A DNA stretch of 64,000 nucleotides from Marmoricola sp. (GTDB lineage: Bacteria; Actinomycetota; Actinomycetes; Propionibacteriales; Nocardioidaceae). The notes under the pieces were generated by a model. That model did not search any database. It was not told the origin of the DNA and was given only the letters and a program-made list of their open reading frames with translations. Position 1 is the first letter of the stretch. Each line of letters starts with the position of its first letter. This document shows, in pieces, positions 30,356 through 45,571 of this stretch. Made by a program: the position numbers and the translations under genes. The stretch lies in contig JAOPYC010000166.1 in the NCBI GenBank assembly GCA_025964795.1, forward strand, positions 1-64,000, given 5' to 3'.

Positions 30356-30791
30356 AGGTCACGGTGATCTCGCCGCCGGCGACGCTGACCTTCAGGGCCT
30401 CGAGGCCCCTGGTCGCCGGCCCGTGGACGACCGAGCCGTCCTTGATGGAGAACTTGCTGCCGTGGCAGGTGCAGTCGATGTCCTCACCGCTGATCTTGCT
30501 GACCGGGCAGCCCTGGTGGGTGCAGATCGCACTGAACGCCTTGAAGTCGCCCTCGGTCGGCTGGGTCACCACGACCTTCTCGGACGTGAAGATCTTGCCG
30601 CCACCGACCGGCACCTCGGAGGACTTGCCGATCGCACCCGAGCCCGTCGTGCCGCCGCTGCCGCCGCTGCTCGCCTCGGAGCCCGAGCCGCAGGCCGCGA
30701 CGAGCGGCACCCCGACCCCGAGGCCCACGAAGCCACCGATCACGGCCCGACGCGAGGCCAGGTTCTGGTTCGTCGTCTCGTTCTCACTCAT
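30354..30791 (-). CDS. Rieske 2Fe-2S lipoprotein with Tat-type signal
   Basis: A 145-residue exported iron-sulfur protein. The N-terminus has a twin-arginine motif (ASRRAVIGG), a hydrophobic stretch and a lipobox LVAAC (Cys34), then a Gly/Ser linker. The Rieske cluster ligands are Cys90, His92, Cys107 and His110 (CTHQGC and CTCHGS), with Cys95-Cys109 as the usual disulfide. Cofactor loading before export explains the Tat signal. It is too short to be the cytochrome bc1 Rieske subunit; an electron-transfer role at the membrane surface is inferred. Confidence 0.9.
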   Translation of the reverse strand: MSENETTNQNLASRRAVIGGFVGLGVGVPLVAACGSGSEASSGGSGGTTGSGAIGKSSEVPVGGGKIFTSEKVVVTQPTEGDFKAFSAICTHQGCPVSKISGEDIDCTCHGSKFSIKDGSVVHGPATRGLEALKVSVAGGEITVT

Positions 30792-38437: not shown

Positions 38438-38833
38438 TCAGCCGTCCAGAGGGAACGAGTGGTGCTCGTGGGCCACGACCCAGTCGCCGTTCTCGCGGCG
38501 CAGCCCGAGGGTCAGGCGCAGGCGGCGGTCGGGGTTGGTCGTCAGGCCCTCGGGGGTGTCGCAAGGCAGCAGCGCGTGGGCGAAGGCGACGCCCTCGCCG
38601 GCTGTGACGTGGAGCGACTCGATGTCGAAGACGGCACCCCGCTGCCACTCGAAGAAGCCGGGCCAGGTCGCGCGGTAGGCGTCGATCCCGCGGACACCCT
38701 GGTCCGGCGGGGGTACGTCGAACATCACGATGTCGTCGGTGTGCTGGGCCAGCACCGCGTCGATGTCCCCGTCGTGGACGGCGACGGCCCAGCTCCGGAT
38801 CAGCTGCTCGATCCGCTGCTCCTCGTCGGACAT
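38438..38833 (-). CDS. SnoaL/NTF2-like ketosteroid isomerase-fold protein
   Basis: A 131-residue protein with the NTF2/SnoaL-like fold. It begins EEQRIEQLIRSWAVAVHDGD, typical of the family's first helix, and has HTDDIVMFDVPPP then a C-terminal DWVVAHEHHSFP strand. The fold includes ketosteroid isomerases and polyketide cyclases but also many proteins of unknown role. It stands 31 bp downstream of kshB on the same strand, so it may be the last gene of the ksh operon; a steroid role is only inferred. Confidence 0.8.
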   Translation of the reverse strand: MSDEEQRIEQLIRSWAVAVHDGDIDAVLAQHTDDIVMFDVPPPDQGVRGIDAYRATWPGFFEWQRGAVFDIESLHVTAGEGVAFAHALLPCDTPEGLTTNPDRRLRLTLGLRRENGDWVVAHEHHSFPLDG

Positions 38834-38864: not shown

Positions 38865-39947
38865 TCAGCCGTTGTAGCTGATCCGGAGCTTCTCGCTGGC
38901 GGGGAGGGACTGGCAGACGAGGCGGATGCCGTCGGCGAGGTCGTCGGCGTCGAGGACCTCGTTGTTCTTCATCGTGACCTCGCCCTCGAGGACGACGCAG
39001 GCGCAGGCGCTGCAGTTGCCCTCGCGGCAGGAGAACGGCGCGTCGAGGCCCTTCTCCTCGAGGAACTCGAGCAGCGGCTTGTCGCCCTGCCAGTCGTCGA
39101 AGGAGTAGTCCTGCCCGTCGAGATCGACCTCGACGGTGACGGGCCCGGTGACGGCCCGGGCGTCGTCGTCCTCGTGGTCGTCGGCCTCGGCGAGGGTCTT
39201 GGCGGCGGCCTGCATCTCCTCGACGTCGCCGAACGGGTTGCCGCCGAGCGAGACGAACTTCTCCTGGTGGCGGCGGTCGCGCGGGAAGCCGAGCTCCTTG
39301 AGCGACTCGACGACGGCCTTCATGAACGGGGCCGGCCCGCAGACGAACGCCGTGTAGGCGGAGAAGTGGGTCGCGAACGCCTTCAGCTGCTCCTGGGTGG
39401 GCAGGCCCTGCACGGACTCCAGCCAGTGCACGACGACGAGGCGGTCGGCGTACTCCGCGGACAGCTGGGCGAGCTCCCGGGCGAAGATCACCGACGTCTC
39501 GTCGCGGTTGGCGTAGAACAGCACGACCTTGCCGTGCCCCTTCTCCAGCGCCGTGCGGGTGATCGACATGACCGGTGTGACGCCCGAGCCACCGGCGAAC
39601 AGCAGCAGGTCGGACTCGAGGTCGCGCGGGGTGAAGATGCCGCTGGGCGGCAGCACGCGCAGGGTGTCGCCCTCACGCAGGTTGTCGCAGAGCCAGTTGG
39701 ACGCGTAGCCGTCGACGGTGCGCTTCACGGTGATCTGGTGCCGGCCGGTGTGCGGCGCCGACGAGAGCGAGTAGCAGCGCGCGGCGAGGCCGGTCTGGTC
39801 ACTGGGTACGGCGACGGTGAGGAACTGCCCGGGCGTGTAGGAGAACCGCTCCGCGAGGTCGTCCGGCACCTCGAACACGATCGAGTGCGCGTCAGCGGTC
39901 TCCTCGACGACCTCGAGCACCTTCAGGACGAAGGACTCAGTAGCCAT
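38865..39947 (-). CDS. kshB: 3-ketosteroid 9-alpha-hydroxylase, reductase subunit KshB
   Basis: KshB passes electrons from NADH through FAD and a 2Fe-2S cluster to KshA, which hydroxylates C9 of the steroid nucleus and so triggers B-ring opening. The 360-residue protein has an FAD-binding domain (RCYSLSSAPHTG; VKRTVDGYASNWL), an NADH domain (FAGGSGVTPVMSI) and a C-terminal plant-type ferredoxin domain (CREGNCSACAC plus a distal VCQS cysteine). An acidic linker (ADDHEDDDARAV) joins them. It closely resembles mycobacterial Rv3571. Start ATG 39947 overlaps the upstream small gene by 11 bp. Confidence 0.94.
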   Translation of the reverse strand: MATESFVLKVLEVVEETADAHSIVFEVPDDLAERFSYTPGQFLTVAVPSDQTGLAARCYSLSSAPHTGRHQITVKRTVDGYASNWLCDNLREGDTLRVLPPSGIFTPRDLESDLLLFAGGSGVTPVMSITRTALEKGHGKVVLFYANRDETSVIFARELAQLSAEYADRLVVVHWLESVQGLPTQEQLKAFATHFSAYTAFVCGPAPFMKAVVESLKELGFPRDRRHQEKFVSLGGNPFGDVEEMQAAAKTLAEADDHEDDDARAVTGPVTVEVDLDGQDYSFDDWQGDKPLLEFLEEKGLDAPFSCREGNCSACACVVLEGEVTMKNNEVLDADDLADGIRLVCQSLPASEKLRISYNG

Positions 39948-40239
39948 CCAGGGCCCCGATCTCGAGCTCACCCTCGGCCACGGCGCGATCGATGGAGGAG
40001 CTCAGCCGCGGGCAGGACGCGTAGACGTGGCGGCCCCCGGGCTCGCCCTCCATCTTGCGGAACTCAGCGCACTGCGCAAGCGAGTCGGCGTGCCACTGGA
40101 TGGAGGTGTGGTGCTCGCTGTTCTTCTTCACCCCGACCTTGGCGAGGCAGTCGAGGCAGGCGACCTCGGTGAGGCGGGCCTGGGTGTAGAGGCGCTGGTC
40201 CTCCAGCGTCTCGTCGCTGGTCGGTGCGAAGGAGACCAT
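39937..40239 (-). CDS. Small four-cysteine protein between kshA and kshB
   Basis: A 100-residue soluble protein of unknown function. Its cysteines Cys28, Cys31, Cys57 and Cys76 (CLDC; AQCAEF; ASCPRL) could bind zinc or an Fe-S cluster. It is rich in charged residues and has a conserved-looking TSIQWHADSLAQCAEF core. ATG 40239 shares a base with the kshA stop (a GTG one codon earlier is the alternative), and its 3' end overlaps kshB by 11 bp. The tight coupling suggests an accessory or maturation role for the hydroxylase, which is inference. It may correspond to small proteins encoded near kshA in mycobacteria. Confidence 0.8.
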   Translation of the reverse strand: MVSFAPTSDETLEDQRLYTQARLTEVACLDCLAKVGVKKNSEHHTSIQWHADSLAQCAEFRKMEGEPGGRHVYASCPRLSSSIDRAVAEGELEIGALDGY

Positions 40240-41405
40240 CACACCCCGCCGGCCGCCGTGGGCACCGAGGCCTCGGCCGACGACTCCTCAGCCGCCCGCT
40301 TCGCGAGGTTCTCGGAGACCTCCGTGCGCCAGTACTCGTTGGCCTTGGTGGTGTCCACCTCGAACTCGAAGCGCTCGGTCATCTCCGGGGCGACGTCGGC
40401 CTGGTCCACGTAGAACTGCTCGTACCAGCGGCGCAGCTGGTAGACCGGCCCGTCCTCCTCGCACAGCAGCGGGTTCTGCACGGGGGCCTTGTTGAGCCAG
40501 ATGTGCACGTCCTGCAGGAACCCCTCGCCGAACATCTCGGTGTACTTCTCGCTGATGTAGTCGGTGGTCTTCTCGTCCACGCCCTGGGGCTTGAGCACCT
40601 TCAGGCCGTACTGAAGGACGAAGGAGTTGTCGCTCGTCGGGATGTGGCAGTTGACCAGCACGACGTCGGTGACGAAGCCCTTGTAGTCGTTCTTGAGCCA
40701 GTTGATCATGAACGACGGGCCGAAGTAGGTGGCCTCGGACTTGAGCACCAGGTCCTCGTCGCCGTAGCCCTTGCCCATCATGTCGGGCCGTCCGGTCGAC
40801 TCCATGAACTGCGTGGCCATGTGCCCCTCGAAGACGTTGCGGAAGCTAGTCGGGAAGGCGAAGTGGATGTAGAAGAAGTGCGCCATGTCCACCACGTTGT
40901 CGACGATCTCGCGGCAGTGCGCGGTGGGGACGTCGAGGACGCTCCAGCTCCAGTCGGAGTAGACGTCGGAGTTCATGATGTCGTCGAGCTCCGGTGGCAG
41001 CAGGCTCTCGTCGGCGGCGGTGCCCTCGACGTCGTGCCAGATCATCAGCAGGCCGTTGCGCTCGGCGGTCTCGTACTTCTGGGTCCGCGCCCGCAGCGGG
41101 ATGCGCCGGGCGTAGGGGATCGCCTTGCACTTGCCGTCGCCGCCCCACCGCCAGTCGTGGAAGGGGCAGGCGATCTCGTTGCCCTTGACCGTTCCCTGGG
41201 TCAGGTCGCCGCCCATGTGTCGGCAGTAGCCGTCCAGCACGTTCAGGGTGCCGTCCTGGGCGGCCCACACCACCAGCTTGCCGCCGAACGCTGTCACCGC
41301 GTGCGGCTCGCCGTCACGGAACGTGTCGACGGGGCCCAAGCAGTGCCAGCCGCGGGCGAACCGCTCGGGCGGCTTGCCCTGGTCGAGGTAGCGGGTGTCG
41401 CTCAT
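40239..41405 (-). CDS. kshA: 3-ketosteroid 9-alpha-hydroxylase, oxygenase subunit KshA
   Basis: KshA is the Rieske non-heme iron oxygenase that hydroxylates C9 of androstenedione-type steroids or their CoA thioesters. The 388-residue protein has Rieske ligands Cys61, His63, Cys80 and His83 (CRHMGG and CPFHDW) and a mononuclear iron site in VDNVVDMAHFFYIHF (His176 and His181), with Asn170/Asp173 relaying electrons. It resembles mycobacterial Rv3526. It leads the kshA-small gene-kshB operon, with a KstR-like operator 47 bp upstream of its ATG. Confidence 0.95.
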   Translation of the reverse strand: MSDTRYLDQGKPPERFARGWHCLGPVDTFRDGEPHAVTAFGGKLVVWAAQDGTLNVLDGYCRHMGGDLTQGTVKGNEIACPFHDWRWGGDGKCKAIPYARRIPLRARTQKYETAERNGLLMIWHDVEGTAADESLLPPELDDIMNSDVYSDWSWSVLDVPTAHCREIVDNVVDMAHFFYIHFAFPTSFRNVFEGHMATQFMESTGRPDMMGKGYGDEDLVLKSEATYFGPSFMINWLKNDYKGFVTDVVLVNCHIPTSDNSFVLQYGLKVLKPQGVDEKTTDYISEKYTEMFGEGFLQDVHIWLNKAPVQNPLLCEEDGPVYQLRRWYEQFYVDQADVAPEMTERFEFEVDTTKANEYWRTEVSENLAKRAAEESSAEASVPTAAGGV

Positions 41406-41451
41406 CGCGGGTGCCTCTCAATCCGGTGCGGTCGAGGAACGGGTGCAAAAC

Positions 41452-41465
41452 AAGAACAGGTTACA
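41452..41465. promoter_or_regulatory. KstR-like operator at kshA
   Basis: AAGAACAGGTTACA matches the KstR consensus TnnAACnnGTTnnA at every fixed base except the first. It sits 47 bp upstream of the kshA ATG, within a 23-bp sequence (41449-41471) that recurs at 41586-41608. Confidence 0.65.
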
Positions 41466-41588
41466 GTTTTGAGCGCAACCAGGCCAGTCTCCACTGGGCC
41501 ACGAAGCGTAGCGACATCCGCTCGCTGGGCGTGCGCCCCATGCCCGACCCGGCACCCGTCACGATGCGGCGGCACGGTGGACCAGAAC

Positions 41589-41602
41589 AAGAACAGGTTA
41601 TA
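41589..41602. promoter_or_regulatory. KstR-like operator at fadE26
   Basis: AAGAACAGGTTATA matches TnnAACnnGTTnnA except at the first base. It is followed by a -10-like TATAGT (41599-41604), so the operator overlaps the probable fadE26 promoter; the fadE26 ATG is 58 bp downstream. Confidence 0.65.
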
Positions 41603-41659: not shown

Positions 41660-42883
41660 ATGCACATCGCGCTGACAGCCGAGCAGGAGGCGTTGCGCGC
41701 CGAGCTGCGCGAGTACTTCGCCGCCCTGGTCACCCCCGAGCGGCGCGCCGGCCTGTCCGCCGCGACGAACGACTTCGAGCCCGGGGCGGGCGAGGGAGGC
41801 GAGTTCGGGGCCACCGACGTCTACCGCGACGTCATCCGCGAGATCGGCCACGACGGCTGGCTGGGCATCGGCTGGCCCGAGGAGTGGGGCGGCCAGAACC
41901 GCTCGATGATGGATCAGCTGATCTTCACCGACGAGGCCGCCATCGCCGGGGTGCCGATCCCCTACCTGACCCTGAACACCGTCGGGCCGACGATCATGCG
42001 GTTCGGCACCGACGCGCAGAAGCACGAGATGCTGCCCAAGATCCTCAAGGGCGAGATGCACTTCTCGATCGGCTACTCCGAGCCCGACTCAGGCACCGAC
42101 TTGGCCAGCCTCAAGACCCGCGCCCGGCTGGAGGCCACCTCGAATGGGCAGAGTGAGTGGGTGATCAACGGTCAGAAGATGTGGACCTCGCTGATCCAGT
42201 ACGCCGACTACATCTGGCTGGCCTGCCGCACCGATCCGGACCTGCCCCGCCACAAGGGCCTCTCGATGATCCTGGTGCCCGCCGACAGCCCCGGCTTCAC
42301 CTTCACACCGGTGCACACCATCGCCGGCGTGGGCACCAGCGCCACCTACTACGAGGACGTCCGGGTGCCGCGCGACAACCTCGTCGGGGAGCTCAACGGC
42401 GGCTGGGCCCTGATGACCAACCAGCTCAACCACGAGCGGGTCGCCCTCACCTCGGCGGCGCCGGTCACCCACTCGATCGAGCTGGTCACCGAGTGGGCGC
42501 AGCAGACCCGCAACCCGGACGGGCACCGGGTGATCGACTCCGAGTGGGTGCAGGTGCTGCTGGGGCGCGCGCAGGCCCGCGCCGACATGCTCAAGCTGCT
42601 CAACTGGCAGCTCGCCTCGGCGGTGAAGGACCTCTCCCCCGCCGACGCCTCGGCCACCAAGGTCTACGGGTCCGAGATGGCGACCGAGGTCTACCGCTCG
42701 CTGATGGAGGTCGTCGGTCCCAAGTCGCTGGTGGCGGCCAGCTCGCCGGGGGCGGTGCTCCGCGGACGGCTCGAGCGGTTCTACCGCTCCTCGCTGGTGA
42801 TGACCTTCGGCGGCGGGACCAACGAGATCCAGCGCGACATCATCGGGTACGTCGGCCTCGGCCTCCCAGCCGCGAAGCGATAG
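41660..42883 (+). CDS. fadE26: Steroid side-chain acyl-CoA dehydrogenase FadE26 (ChsE4-like)
   Basis: One subunit of the alpha2-beta2 acyl-CoA dehydrogenase that introduces the double bond in the sterol side chain CoA ester. The 407-residue protein matches mycobacterial FadE26 (Rv3504) throughout: GWPEEWGGQNRSMMDQLIFT, FSIGYSEPDSGTDLASL, NGQKMWTSLIQYADY and the NQLNHERVAL stretch with Glu259, the likely catalytic base. The C-terminal FGGGTNEIQRDIIG is the FAD-contact motif. ATG 41660 follows AGGAG. It is first of a four-gene operon. Confidence 0.94.
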   Translation: MHIALTAEQEALRAELREYFAALVTPERRAGLSAATNDFEPGAGEGGEFGATDVYRDVIREIGHDGWLGIGWPEEWGGQNRSMMDQLIFTDEAAIAGVPIPYLTLNTVGPTIMRFGTDAQKHEMLPKILKGEMHFSIGYSEPDSGTDLASLKTRARLEATSNGQSEWVINGQKMWTSLIQYADYIWLACRTDPDLPRHKGLSMILVPADSPGFTFTPVHTIAGVGTSATYYEDVRVPRDNLVGELNGGWALMTNQLNHERVALTSAAPVTHSIELVTEWAQQTRNPDGHRVIDSEWVQVLLGRAQARADMLKLLNWQLASAVKDLSPADASATKVYGSEMATEVYRSLMEVVGPKSLVAASSPGAVLRGRLERFYRSSLVMTFGGGTNEIQRDIIGYVGLGLPAAKR

Positions 42884-42890
42884 GACAGCC

Positions 42891-44009
42891 ATGGACTTCG
42901 AACCCACCGCAGAGGCGACCGAGGCGGCCGACCTGGCCGCCACCATCCTCGCCGACCACACCACCCCCGAGCGGCTCCGTGCCGTGGACGCCGAGGGCGA
43001 GCGCTTCGACCGCGCCCTGTGGACCGCGCTCAGCGAGGCCGGCCTCGTCGCGCTCACCGTCCCGGAGGACCACGACGGCAGCGGGCTCGGCCTCGTCGAG
43101 CTGTGCCGGGTGCTGGTCGAGGTCGGGCGCACCGTGGCACCGGTGCCGCTCGGCACCCACGCGGTGACCGCGCTGGCGATCAGCCAGTTCGGCAGCCGGG
43201 CCCAGCAGGCCCGGTGGCTGCCGGAGGCCGCGTCGGGCGGCTCGGTGCTGACCACCGCCCTGTCGGAGGACCGCGCGTTCGCCCCGGCAGAACCGGTCAC
43301 CCGGGCCGAGAACGACGGCTCCTCCTGGCTGCTGACCGGGGCCAAGGTCGTGGTGCCGGCGGGGACGCTGGCCGGGCTGTTCGTCGTGCCCGCCTCCACG
43401 GCCGAGGGCGTCACCGTCTTCCTGGTGCACGCCGACGACCCGGGCGTGGTCGTCACGCCGCAGCGGGTGAGCGACGGTGACGTCGTCGGCCGTCTCGAGC
43501 TCGACCGCACCGCGGTGCCGATGGATCGGGTGCTCGGTGGCATCGGTGGTGGCGCCGAGGTCATCGAGTGGCTGACGCAGCGCCTGACGGTCGCCGTGTG
43601 CGCCCAGCAGCTGGGCACGCTCGAGGGCGCGATGACGCTGACCTCGTCGTACGCCAAGACGCGGGAGCAGTTCGGCCGGCCGATCGGCACCTTCCAGGCC
43701 GTCTCGCAGCGCCTGGCCGACGGCTACATCGACGTGCTCGGCGCGCGGCTGACCATGTGGCAGGCCGCCTGGAAGCTCAGCGAAGGGTTGCCGGCGGACG
43801 CCGACGTGGCGATCGCCAAGCTGTGGGCCGCCGACGCGGGTCACCAGGTGGCGCACACGACCGTGCACGTGCACGGGGGCGTCGGCATCGACCTCGACGG
43901 CGAGGCGCACCGCTACTTCACCGCCGCCAAGCGCCACGAGTTCACCCTGGGCGGGACGACCGACCAGGCCCGCGCGCTGGGCGCCCTGTTGGCGCACGAG
44001 CCCGCCTGA
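42891..44009 (+). CDS. fadE27: Acyl-CoA dehydrogenase FadE27 (ChsE5-like)
   Basis: The 372-residue partner subunit of FadE26. As in mycobacterial FadE27 (Rv3505), it keeps the overall fold and the FAD-side segments (YAKTREQFGRPIGTFQAVSQ; VHVHGGVGIDLDGEAHRYF). It has no NHER-type catalytic glutamate at the position used by its partner (WLTQRLTVAVCAQQLG instead). It begins 7 bp after fadE26. Knowledge of the ChsE4-ChsE5 enzyme predicts an obligate heterotetramer. Confidence 0.92.
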   Translation: MDFEPTAEATEAADLAATILADHTTPERLRAVDAEGERFDRALWTALSEAGLVALTVPEDHDGSGLGLVELCRVLVEVGRTVAPVPLGTHAVTALAISQFGSRAQQARWLPEAASGGSVLTTALSEDRAFAPAEPVTRAENDGSSWLLTGAKVVVPAGTLAGLFVVPASTAEGVTVFLVHADDPGVVVTPQRVSDGDVVGRLELDRTAVPMDRVLGGIGGGAEVIEWLTQRLTVAVCAQQLGTLEGAMTLTSSYAKTREQFGRPIGTFQAVSQRLADGYIDVLGARLTMWQAAWKLSEGLPADADVAIAKLWAADAGHQVAHTTVHVHGGVGIDLDGEAHRYFTAAKRHEFTLGGTTDQARALGALLAHEPA

Positions 44010-44011
44010 CC

Positions 44012-45571
44012 GTGTCGACGATCCGTGACGCGCTGCTGGCGCGGGCCGGCGACGACCACCCGGCGCTGTTGTCCGGTGACGAGCGCTGGTCGTGGCAGCA
44101 GTACGTCGAGCAGTCGGCCCGGCGGGCGCACGCACTTGCCGGCCTGCTCGACCCCGGCCGGCCGGCCCACGTCGGCCTGCTGATGGACAACACCCCCGAG
44201 ATGGTCTTCCAGCTCGGGGCCGCGGGGCTCGGGGCCCACGTCGCCATCGGGCTGAACACCACACGTCGCGGGGCGGCGCTGGCCGCCGACATCGTCCGGG
44301 CCGACTGCCAGGTCGTGCTCGTGGACGCCCGCCTCGAGCCGCTGCTCGACGGGGTCGACCTCGGCGAGGTGCGCGTCGTACGCAGTGACGACCCGGCGTG
44401 GACGGCCCGGGTGCAGGATGCGCCCACCACCCCGCCCGTGGCGTCTCCGGTGCCCGGGTCGCTGTTCATGCTGATCTTCACCTCCGGCACCAGCGGCGAG
44501 CCGAAGGCCGTCCGGATCACGCACGAGAAGATCACCTACCCGGGTGCCTACCTGACCGATCGCCTCGGGCTGGGTCGCAACGACGTGTTCTACGTGTCGA
44601 TGCCGCTGTTCCACTCCAACTCGGTGATGGCGGGCTGGGGGCCGGCCCTGACCTGCGGGGCCACCGTCGCCCTGGCCGAGACGTTCTCGGCGAGCCGGCT
44701 GCTGGCGGACGTCCGGCACTACGGTGCCACCTACCTCAACTACGTCGGCAAGCCGCTGACCTACGTGCTCGCCACCCCTGAGCTGCCCGACGACGCCGAC
44801 AACCCCCTGCGGCTGGCCTTCGGCAACGAGGCTGGTGACCGCGACATCAAGGCGTTCGCGGAACGGTTCGGCTGCGTCGTGGTCGACGGCTTCGGGTCCA
44901 CCGAGAACGCCGTGGTGATCTCCCGGATCCCGGGGACCCCGCCCGGCTCGCTCGGCGTGCCGCTCGAGGGCATCGCCGTGCTCGACCCCGGGACGCTCCA
45001 GGAGTGTCCGCGCGCGGTCCTCGACGACACCGGCCGGGTGACCAACCTCGACGAGGCCACGGGCGAGCTGGTGAACACCACCGGGAGCGGGCAGTTCGCG
45101 GGCTACTACAACGACGAGGCCGCCACCGCCGAGCGGATGCGCGGTGGCATGTACTGGAGCGGCGACCTCGCCTACCGCGACCAGGAGGGCTTCGTCTACT
45201 ACGCCGGACGCACCGCCGACTGGCTCCGGGTCGACGGTGAGAACCTCGCTGCCGCCCCGATCGAGCGGATCCTCGTCCGGCACCCGGCCATCGCCCAGGC
45301 CGCGGCGTACGCCGTCCCCGACCCCGCGTCCGGTGACCAGCTGGTCACCGCCCTCGTGCTGGTCGGGGAGCTCACCCCGTCCGGCTTCGAGCGGTTCCTC
45401 GACGAGCAGCCCGACCTGGGCACCAAGTCGCGCCCCCGCTACGTGCGGATCATGGACGACCTCCCTAGGACGGCCACGAACAAGGTGCTCAAGCGCGCCC
45501 TCAAGCTCCAGGGACTCCGCGGCGGCGGGACCGTCTGGGTCCGCGAGGAACGCGGGACGGCGTACTCCTAG
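44012..45571 (+). CDS. fadD17: Steroid side-chain acyl-CoA ligase FadD17
   Basis: An adenylate-forming ligase of 519 residues that activates a shortened sterol side-chain acid as its CoA ester. The AMP-binding motif is IFTSGTSGEPKAV (residues about 150-162); VVVDGFGSTENAV, YWSGDLAYRD and the C-terminal ATNKVLKRAL lysine motif follow. The order fadE26-fadE27-fadD17 is the same as in mycobacteria (Rv3504-Rv3506), where FadD17 prefers the C5 side chain. GTG 44012 was chosen because it starts 2 bp after fadE27. Confidence 0.92.
   Translation: MSTIRDALLARAGDDHPALLSGDERWSWQQYVEQSARRAHALAGLLDPGRPAHVGLLMDNTPEMVFQLGAAGLGAHVAIGLNTTRRGAALAADIVRADCQVVLVDARLEPLLDGVDLGEVRVVRSDDPAWTARVQDAPTTPPVASPVPGSLFMLIFTSGTSGEPKAVRITHEKITYPGAYLTDRLGLGRNDVFYVSMPLFHSNSVMAGWGPALTCGATVALAETFSASRLLADVRHYGATYLNYVGKPLTYVLATPELPDDADNPLRLAFGNEAGDRDIKAFAERFGCVVVDGFGSTENAVVISRIPGTPPGSLGVPLEGIAVLDPGTLQECPRAVLDDTGRVTNLDEATGELVNTTGSGQFAGYYNDEAATAERMRGGMYWSGDLAYRDQEGFVYYAGRTADWLRVDGENLAAAPIERILVRHPAIAQAAAYAVPDPASGDQLVTALVLVGELTPSGFERFLDEQPDLGTKSRPRYVRIMDDLPRTATNKVLKRALKLQGLRGGGTVWVREERGTAYS

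What the first reader, a model, noticed from the sequence alone, without database searches (positions are those of the whole stretch)
38865..41405. kshA and kshB in one overlapping operon with a four-Cys protein between
In mycobacteria the two hydroxylase subunits are encoded apart. Here kshA, a 100-residue four-cysteine protein and kshB overlap by 1-4 bp and 11 bp, so all three are probably made in fixed ratio. The small protein is a candidate accessory or Fe-S maturation factor of the hydroxylase with no known role.
Basis: partly seen in the sequence, partly recalled or inferred. Interest (0 to 1): 0.5.

Follow-up and report, generated by a model that had tools for sequence, protein, structure and literature searches.

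The report
Unnamed four-cysteine partner gene of KshA
A small uncharacterised protein with four fixed cysteines is encoded directly after the steroid-cutting oxygenase KshA across actinobacteria, which makes it a likely but untested helper of that enzyme.

Summary
kshA, a 100-residue protein X and kshB lie head to tail on the minus strand, overlapping by 1 bp (4 bp with the GTG start) and 11 bp. All 80 named X-bearing contigs fetched (nearly all Nocardioides-type) keep the order kshA–X–kshB; a KstR-type palindrome core lies upstream in 78 of 78 tested.

X belongs to kshA, not to kshB. In 21 mycobacteria-like loci it directly follows kshA with no kshB in the flank held. In a class sample of 296 genomes, strong KshA and the X family occur in exactly the same 37. 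The family has four invariant cysteines, its tree mirrors KshA's (r = 0.90), and Pfam, NCBIfam and the PDB hold no relative. By position it corresponds to M. tuberculosis Rv3527, listed as a hypothetical cholesterol gene.

Function is unproven. M. neoaurum KshA plus KshB alone are active in Bacillus subtilis (PMC4967059), so X is not needed for catalysis; one KshA clade of 8 lacks a nearby X. Best reading: a metal-binding, trans-acting assembly or stability factor for KshA. Coupling is well conserved for kshA–X but not for X–kshB (11-bp overlap in 20 of 80).

The parts
40239..41405 (-). kshA, Rieske oxygenase subunit of 3-ketosteroid 9-alpha-hydroxylase
   Evidence: PF19298 2.8e-80 and Rieske 1.5e-21; PDB 2zyl E 9.8e-155; Rieske C-x-H-x16-C-x2-H and D-x2-H-x4-H iron motif read
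39937..40239 (-). Small gene X (100 aa from ATG 40239; 101 aa from GTG 40242), four invariant cysteines C28, C31, C57, C76
   Evidence: no match in Pfam, NCBIfam or PDB
38865..39947 (-). kshB, FAD/NAD/[2Fe-2S] reductase subunit
   Evidence: FAD_binding_6, NAD_binding_1, Fer2; homologous gene after X in 80 of 80 named loci
41449..41463 (.). KstR-type operator upstream of kshA (AACAAGAACAGGTTA; core AACnnGTT on the opposite strand)
   Evidence: 2 copies in the window, 0.01 expected with up to 2 mismatches; core within 250 bp upstream of kshA in 78 of 78 loci versus 142 of 2329 control windows; motif TnnAACnnGTTnnA from PMC1995591
41586..41600 (.). Second identical KstR-type box, on the side of the divergent acyl-CoA dehydrogenase operon
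41660..45571 (+). Divergent genes: two acyl-CoA dehydrogenases (about 41660-42883, 42891-44009) and an acyl-CoA synthetase (44015-45571)
   Evidence: Pfam; sterol side-chain role inferred from context only

Best explanation
[quoted passage not shown] The small protein X is a dedicated, trans-acting partner of the oxygenase KshA, coupled to it in translation and co-inherited with it. Its four invariant cysteines most likely hold one metal site: zinc, in a knuckle-plus-helix arrangement, or less likely an Fe-S cluster. I think it most likely helps KshA reach or keep its loaded, folded trimeric state in vivo (Rieske cluster or mononuclear iron loading, or protection against oxygen damage) without taking part in catalysis. 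Shown: gene order, overlapping junctions, co-occurrence, invariant cysteines, mirrored trees. Inferred: translational coupling, KstR control, physical contact with KshA, metal binding, the assembly or stability role.
For: Class sample (296 genomes, the window's included): strong KshA (PF19298 at 244 bits or more; the next match is at 171) in 37 genomes, X family in the same 37, neither in the other 259. 54 of 67 strong kshA have X within 1.5 kb downstream on the same strand, and the 3 unpaired X lie 4-11 kb from an unpaired kshA. In 21 mycobacteria-like loci (L115-L135) X has a possible start codon -8 to +10 bp from the kshA stop. On plasmids, 5 of 7 actinobacterial records with KshA carry X, 3 of them directly next to kshA. 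Trees of KshA and X mirror each other (78 pairs, r 0.90; best of 2000 permutations 0.12) and 75 of 78 pairs fall in matching clusters of three. Cysteines are fixed: 138-139 of 139 rows, the one exception being a fragment. In the weak model the CxxC lies between two strands and C76 just before a helix.
Against: M. neoaurum KshA and KshB alone, expressed in B. subtilis, give 0.57 U per mg extract and 2.41 U per mg co-purified (PMC4967059, passages; whether that kshA has an X beside it at home was not checked). 13 of 67 strong kshA have no X within 1.5 kb, 8 of them in one supported clade. Two actinobacterial plasmids with KshA (Rhodococcus qingshengii, Prescottella) and the three proteobacterial ones tested (Sphingobium, Burkholderia, Cupriavidus; of 20 such records) have no X on the same replicon (chromosomes not searched). 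Linkage alone also makes trees mirror each other. The model is weak (pLDDT 65, pTM 0.51) and no fold match supports a metal-delivery protein. Metal binding is untested.
Confidence: 0.42

Rival explanations
1. X is an electron carrier or electron-transfer modulator between KshB and KshA, its four cysteines holding an Fe-S cluster.
For: Four invariant cysteines; in Nocardioidaceae-type loci X lies between oxygenase and reductase.
Against: KshB already carries a plant-type [2Fe-2S] domain, and KshA plus KshB alone is active. No ferredoxin-family hit for X. X follows kshA where kshB is not in the roughly 1.5-kb flank (L115-L135).
Confidence: 0.12
2. X is a separate activity in ring degradation (for example binding or handling the 9-hydroxylated or ring-opened product), co-regulated with kshA but not touching it.
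For: In five places X is 4-11 kb from kshA on the same strand (L166, L167, L174; Rhodococcus jostii RHA1 pRHL1 and R. erythropolis R138 pLRE138), so it can be uncoupled and still be kept in the cluster.
Against: Junctions of a few bases in the 80 named loci (two artefact rows apart) and possible starts within 10 bp in 21 mycobacteria-like loci; exact co-occurrence with strong KshA; mostly matched paralogs.
Confidence: 0.2
3. X is a small zinc-ribbon regulator or RNA/DNA-binding protein that tunes expression of the ksh genes.
For: CxxC knuckle; a few members touch zinc-ribbon families at chance-level E-values (Zn_ribbon_RPAB4, 3 of 50 members, best 0.0031).
Against: Regulation is already accounted for by a KstR-type core in 78 of 78 loci. 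No DNA-binding domain found. The regulator reading does not explain paralogs matched to each kshA.
Confidence: 0.1
4. X is a hitchhiking conserved gene with no tie to hydroxylase function.
For: No direct functional data; KSH is active without it in a foreign host.
Against: Kept across families of the class with fixed cysteines and in exact co-occurrence. The positional counterpart Rv3527 is listed as proven essential in macrophages and mice, and is missing in two leprosy strains together with Rv3526, Rv3571 and many other cholesterol genes (PMC6429209, passages).
Confidence: 0.08

Closest known systems
Rv3527 of M. tuberculosis (hypothetical protein next to kshA = Rv3526; gene numbers of kshA and kshB recalled)
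   Same: By position the same gene: two mycobacteria-like genomes whose KshA matches structure 2zyl at E 2.8e-221 and 3.6e-230 carry the X family directly after kshA.
   Different: kshB lies elsewhere there (Rv3571, recalled), and the mycobacteria-like proteins can start further upstream (107-163 aa to the aligned end from the start nearest the kshA stop). The Rv3527 sequence was not in hand, so identity is inferred from position.
KR76_14170 / KR76_14160 and KR76_27070 / KR76_27080 of Nocardioides simplex VKM Ac-2033D
   Same: kshA and kshB with locus tags ten apart and tags in steps of five, so one gene fits between them (PMC7807495, passages).
   Different: The paper's main text does not name the middle gene; its sequence was not compared.
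[quoted passage not shown]
   Same: KshA and KshB features met.
   Different: A third, overlapping, conserved gene that the two-component description leaves out.
PaaD-like Cys-rich accessory proteins of the PaaABCDE system (recalled, not tested)
   Same: Small cysteine-bearing gene encoded with an oxygenase and a PaaE-type reductase; KshB's best NCBIfam match is PaaE, 219.5 bits, below its cut-off of 420.8.
   Different: No sequence relation of X to any named family was found.

Membership tests
KshA (3-ketosteroid 9-alpha-hydroxylase oxygenase) | KshA_C domain and Rieske domain over curated cut-off | tested here: met
   269.7 and 76.5 bits against cut-offs 23.3 and 20.3
KshA (3-ketosteroid 9-alpha-hydroxylase oxygenase) | Rieske C-x-H-x16-C-x2-H and D-x2-H-x4-H iron ligands | tested here: met
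   read directly in the translation (motifs recalled)
KshA (3-ketosteroid 9-alpha-hydroxylase oxygenase) | 9-alpha-hydroxylation of 3-ketosteroids | not testable with these tools
   needs an assay
KshB reductase | FAD- and NAD-binding domains plus C-terminal plant-type ferredoxin C-x4-C-x2-C-x29-C | tested here: met
   domains; cysteine spacing counted (motif recalled)
kshA-linked four-cysteine family (Rv3527 type) | Four invariant cysteines with a Q-W pair between the second and third | tested here: met
   A3 of 50 rows: C28, C31, V35, Q48, W49, C57, C76, I83 invariant
kshA-linked four-cysteine family (Rv3527 type) | Sequence homology to Rv3527 itself | not tested
   Rv3527 sequence not available; inferred from position next to kshA
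Zinc ribbon / treble clef | Fold and four-cysteine metal geometry | tested here: inconclusive
   model pLDDT 65, coordinates not available for a distance check; no significant fold match; zinc-ribbon hits at chance level
Fe-S maturation factors (SufE, SufU, CsdE type) | Sequence or fold similarity | tested here: inconclusive
   SufU, SufE and CsdE appear only at E 3 to 6.2 among unrelated rows; no family hit
KstR regulon | TnnAACnnGTTnnA operator upstream | tested here: met
   core AACnnGTT in 78 of 78 loci; the window's boxes miss the last base of the full motif; KstR protein and binding not tested

The most novel reading that the evidence does not exclude
3-ketosteroid 9-alpha-hydroxylase of actinobacteria is in vivo a three-gene system: X is an overlooked third component, a dedicated metal-binding chaperone or guard of KshA. 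It would explain the instability of KSH in foreign hosts and the infection phenotype listed for Rv3527.
Probability: 0.33. Interest if true: 0.7.

Novelty: new variant of a known kind. Interest (0 to 1): 0.47.

Why it matters
KSH opens the steroid nucleus, is used to make 9-hydroxy-androstenedione and belongs to the cholesterol pathway of mycobacteria. It is described and engineered as a two-component enzyme. A third gene that is present in all 37 sampled genomes of the class with a strong KshA, and in none of the 259 others, is a direct, testable lead for its poor stability in a foreign host (PMC4967059 calls the enzyme very unstable) and gives a concrete hypothesis for a hypothetical gene listed as needed in infection.

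Tried and rejected
Family searches: no Pfam or NCBIfam match for X at E 1 or below; scanning all 50 A3 members gave only chance-level zinc-ribbon-like and other rows; no PDB relative by sequence (best E 0.27, keratin). Structure: AlphaFold2 on 79 rows gave pLDDT 65.2, pTM 0.51; Foldseek best E 0.57; the VIA second look gave one row, Z 2.3, rmsd 3.5, 71 aligned, EscU fragment, taken as noise. SufU, SufE and CsdE among the Foldseek rows (E 3 to 6.2) were not taken as support for Fe-S maturation.

Viral contigs: no relative of X; the search with A3 could not run because the alignment is too diverse.

The idea that X belongs to kshB, or that the trio is Nocardioides-only, was rejected: X follows kshA with no kshB match in the roughly 1.5-kb flank in L115-L135, while the trio also occurs in G124, G181, G277 and a Tsukamurella plasmid.

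The idea that every kshA needs its own X was rejected: 13 of 67 strong kshA lack it within 1.5 kb, 8 in one clade; the other 5 include 3 with X 4-11 kb away. The Sphingobium protein after kshA does not match the X profile.

The 'strong KshA' line (244 bits against the next match at 171) was chosen after seeing the list. Weaker KshA_C matches (34 further genomes of 296, 20 of 386) have no X. The one X match outside strong-KshA genomes, E 2.7e-4 in G617 (G617 is not in the KshA_C list), was taken as chance. The 67 include two identical-scoring copies near the two ends of one contig of G120. All 14 strong-KshA genomes of the phylum sample are also in the class sample, so they are not new positives. 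In one search three of 78 pairs (L188, L194, L198) fall in different clusters in the two trees. In one search two of 80 rows (-303, -217) are artefacts, probably of broken kshA frames in those assemblies, and are not in the 48. In one search two of 80 loci were dropped for short upstream sequence. Starts are candidates; later in-frame starts exist in most of the 21 loci. Alignment A2 holds 78 of the 80 named loci (L055 and L079 left out) plus the window. The named scan confirmed 91 places and kept 80; it needs conserved X peptides, so it says nothing of kshA without X. Genus and near relatives: X in 17 of 39, KshA_C in 16 of 39; the odd one, G013, is a 33-residue fragment beside kshB with no kshA.

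Papers: searches. Rv3527 occurs in 3 held papers, in table rows and one methods sentence. Locus tags for the middle genes (N. simplex deduced, R. jostii and M. smegmatis guessed from recall) gave 0 papers. '3-ketosteroid 9alpha-hydroxylase' with 'accessory protein' and 'Rieske' gave 0. That is a limited library.

Full report
What is there. KshA and KshB carry the features of their families. X has 100 residues and four cysteines and matches nothing in Pfam, NCBIfam or the PDB. Divergent to kshA lie two acyl-CoA dehydrogenase genes and an acyl-CoA synthetase gene. The gap between them holds two identical copies of a 15-base box containing the AACnnGTT core. That core is the centre of the KstR operator TnnAACnnGTTnnA (PMC1995591, abstract and passages); the window's boxes miss the last base of the full motif. 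The core lies within 250 bp upstream of kshA in 78 of 78 named loci tested (2 of 80 dropped for short flanks), against 142 of 2329 control windows in the same loci.

Is the order conserved? A scan of named genomes with X returned 80 loci, nearly all titled Nocardioides, Marmoricola or Pimelobacter (91 confirmed, best 80 kept). All 80 hold kshA, X and kshB in that order. The kshA/X junction is a 1-bp overlap in 48 of 80; apart from two artefact rows the other 30 are gaps of 1-16 bp. X/kshB overlaps by 11 bp in 20 of 80 and is otherwise 2-161 bp apart. So the tight junction of X with kshA is conserved, but the fixed three-way coupling is not.

X goes with kshA. Using a profile of X and Pfam's KshA_C on the same 296 genomes of the class, strong KshA (244 bits and above; next match 171; line chosen after seeing the list) occurs in 37 and X in exactly the same 37. 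Of 67 strong kshA genes, 54 have X within 1.5 kb downstream on the same strand; the three X genes without a neighbour lie 4-11 kb from a kshA that also lacks one. In 21 mycobacteria-like loci X has a possible start codon -8 to +10 bp from the kshA stop (L115-L135; later starts are also possible), while no kshB match lies in the flank of about 1.5 kb. The phylum sample of 386 adds no new positives, since its 14 strong-KshA genomes are all in the class sample and all have X; it adds that 20 genomes with only weaker KshA_C relatives (3 of them also in the class sample) have no X, and the one further X match, E 2.7e-4 in G617, looks like chance. Among the window's genome and 38 relatives KshA_C occurs in 16 and X in those 16 plus one fragment.

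Plasmids. Of 27 plasmid records with KshA-like genes, 7 are actinobacterial. X lies directly next to kshA in 3 of these (Nocardia farcinica, Tsukamurella, Streptomyces), about 8-9 kb downstream in 2 (R. jostii RHA1 pRHL1, R. erythropolis R138 pLRE138) and is not on the plasmid in 2 (Rhodococcus qingshengii, Prescottella). The Tsukamurella plasmid has the full trio, with X annotated as a hypothetical protein. Three of the 20 proteobacterial records were searched whole (Sphingobium, Burkholderia, Cupriavidus): no X. Chromosomes of these strains were not searched.

How X evolves. In 139 family members two cysteines are fixed in all and two in 138, the exception being a fragment. The 50-row alignment A3 also fixes V35, Q48, W49 and I83. 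Trees of KshA and X mirror each other over 78 pairs (r 0.90; best of 2000 permutations 0.12; without the Nocardioidaceae-type loci, 45 pairs, r 0.90, best permutation 0.25). Cut into three clusters, the two trees agree for 75 of 78 pairs; L188, L194 and L198 differ. Genomes with two such pairs, for example G226 (L124 and L179), carry one pair in each cluster. Linked genes are expected to mirror each other, so this shows co-inheritance as a unit rather than contact.

Results against a strict need. Of the 13 lone kshA genes, eight from the mycobacteria-like family form one clade (support 1.0) with no X nearby; five fall elsewhere among actinobacterial KshA, three of them with X 4-11 kb away. All sit in genomes that have X. 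M. neoaurum KshA and KshB expressed alone in B. subtilis are active, 0.57 U per mg extract and 2.41 U per mg co-purified, though the authors call the enzyme very unstable (PMC4967059, abstract and passages). X is therefore not a catalytic subunit that KSH cannot do without.

Link to the literature. Two mycobacteria-like genomes whose KshA matches structure 2zyl at E 2.8e-221 and 3.6e-230 carry X next to it, so X corresponds by position to Rv3527, the gene after kshA (Rv3526; numbering recalled). This is an inference: the Rv3527 sequence was not in hand. PMC6429209 (passages and tables) lists Rv3527 as a hypothetical protein among genes marked as proven essential in macrophages and mice, and as missing in the two leprosy strains, with Rv3526, Rv3571 and many other cholesterol genes. 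PMC2905415 (passage) lists it among hypoxia-repressed, reaeration-induced genes; PMC3207917 (passage) has it in a transcript table. In N. simplex the two kshA/kshB pairs have locus tags that leave room for one gene between (PMC7807495, passages); that gene is not named in the main text. In the listings of searches and the passages that I read, nothing treats it as a KSH partner.

Mechanism. The model is low-confidence: CxxC between two strands, C57 between two short helices, C76 just before the last helix. That would suit a single metal site, but nothing found confirms it. I favour a dedicated KshA helper acting in trans on assembly or stability. The partnership itself I hold at about 0.85; the assembly or stability mechanism is much less sure. 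Rivals are an electron carrier, a separate pathway activity, and a regulator.

Verdict. The gene is an uncharacterised, already listed hypothetical in mycobacteria. What appears new, within the searches above, is that it is the constant companion of KshA across the sampled class, with kshB joining the unit only in some lineages.

Noticed in passing
window 41449-41463 and 41586-41600: Two identical 15-base KstR-type boxes in the divergent region between kshA and the acyl-CoA dehydrogenase genes, one near each side.
   Followed up: partly
window 38438-38833: SnoaL/NTF2-like gene right after kshB on the same strand. An NTF2-like gene also stands near kshB on the Tsukamurella plasmid, on the other strand (L202), and the protein after kshA on the Sphingobium plasmid (L207) looks SnoaL-like by eye, so a second recurring neighbour is possible.
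   Followed up: no
window 30399-30632 (L005): A second Rieske domain (E 5.7e-14) on the same strand, in a 157-aa open frame.
   Followed up: no
L169-L171, L173, L175-L178: A mycobacteria-like KshA clade (8 genes, support 1.0) that lacks a nearby X gene.
   Followed up: partly
L025 (G013): A fragment of X (last 33 residues) beside kshB with no kshA; truncated assembly or decaying locus.
   Followed up: no
L206 16763-17041 (Rhodococcus jostii RHA1 pRHL1), L239 (R. erythropolis pLRE138), L166, L167, L174: X genes sitting 4-11 kb from kshA on the same strand, so X can be uncoupled from kshA translation and still be kept.
   Followed up: partly
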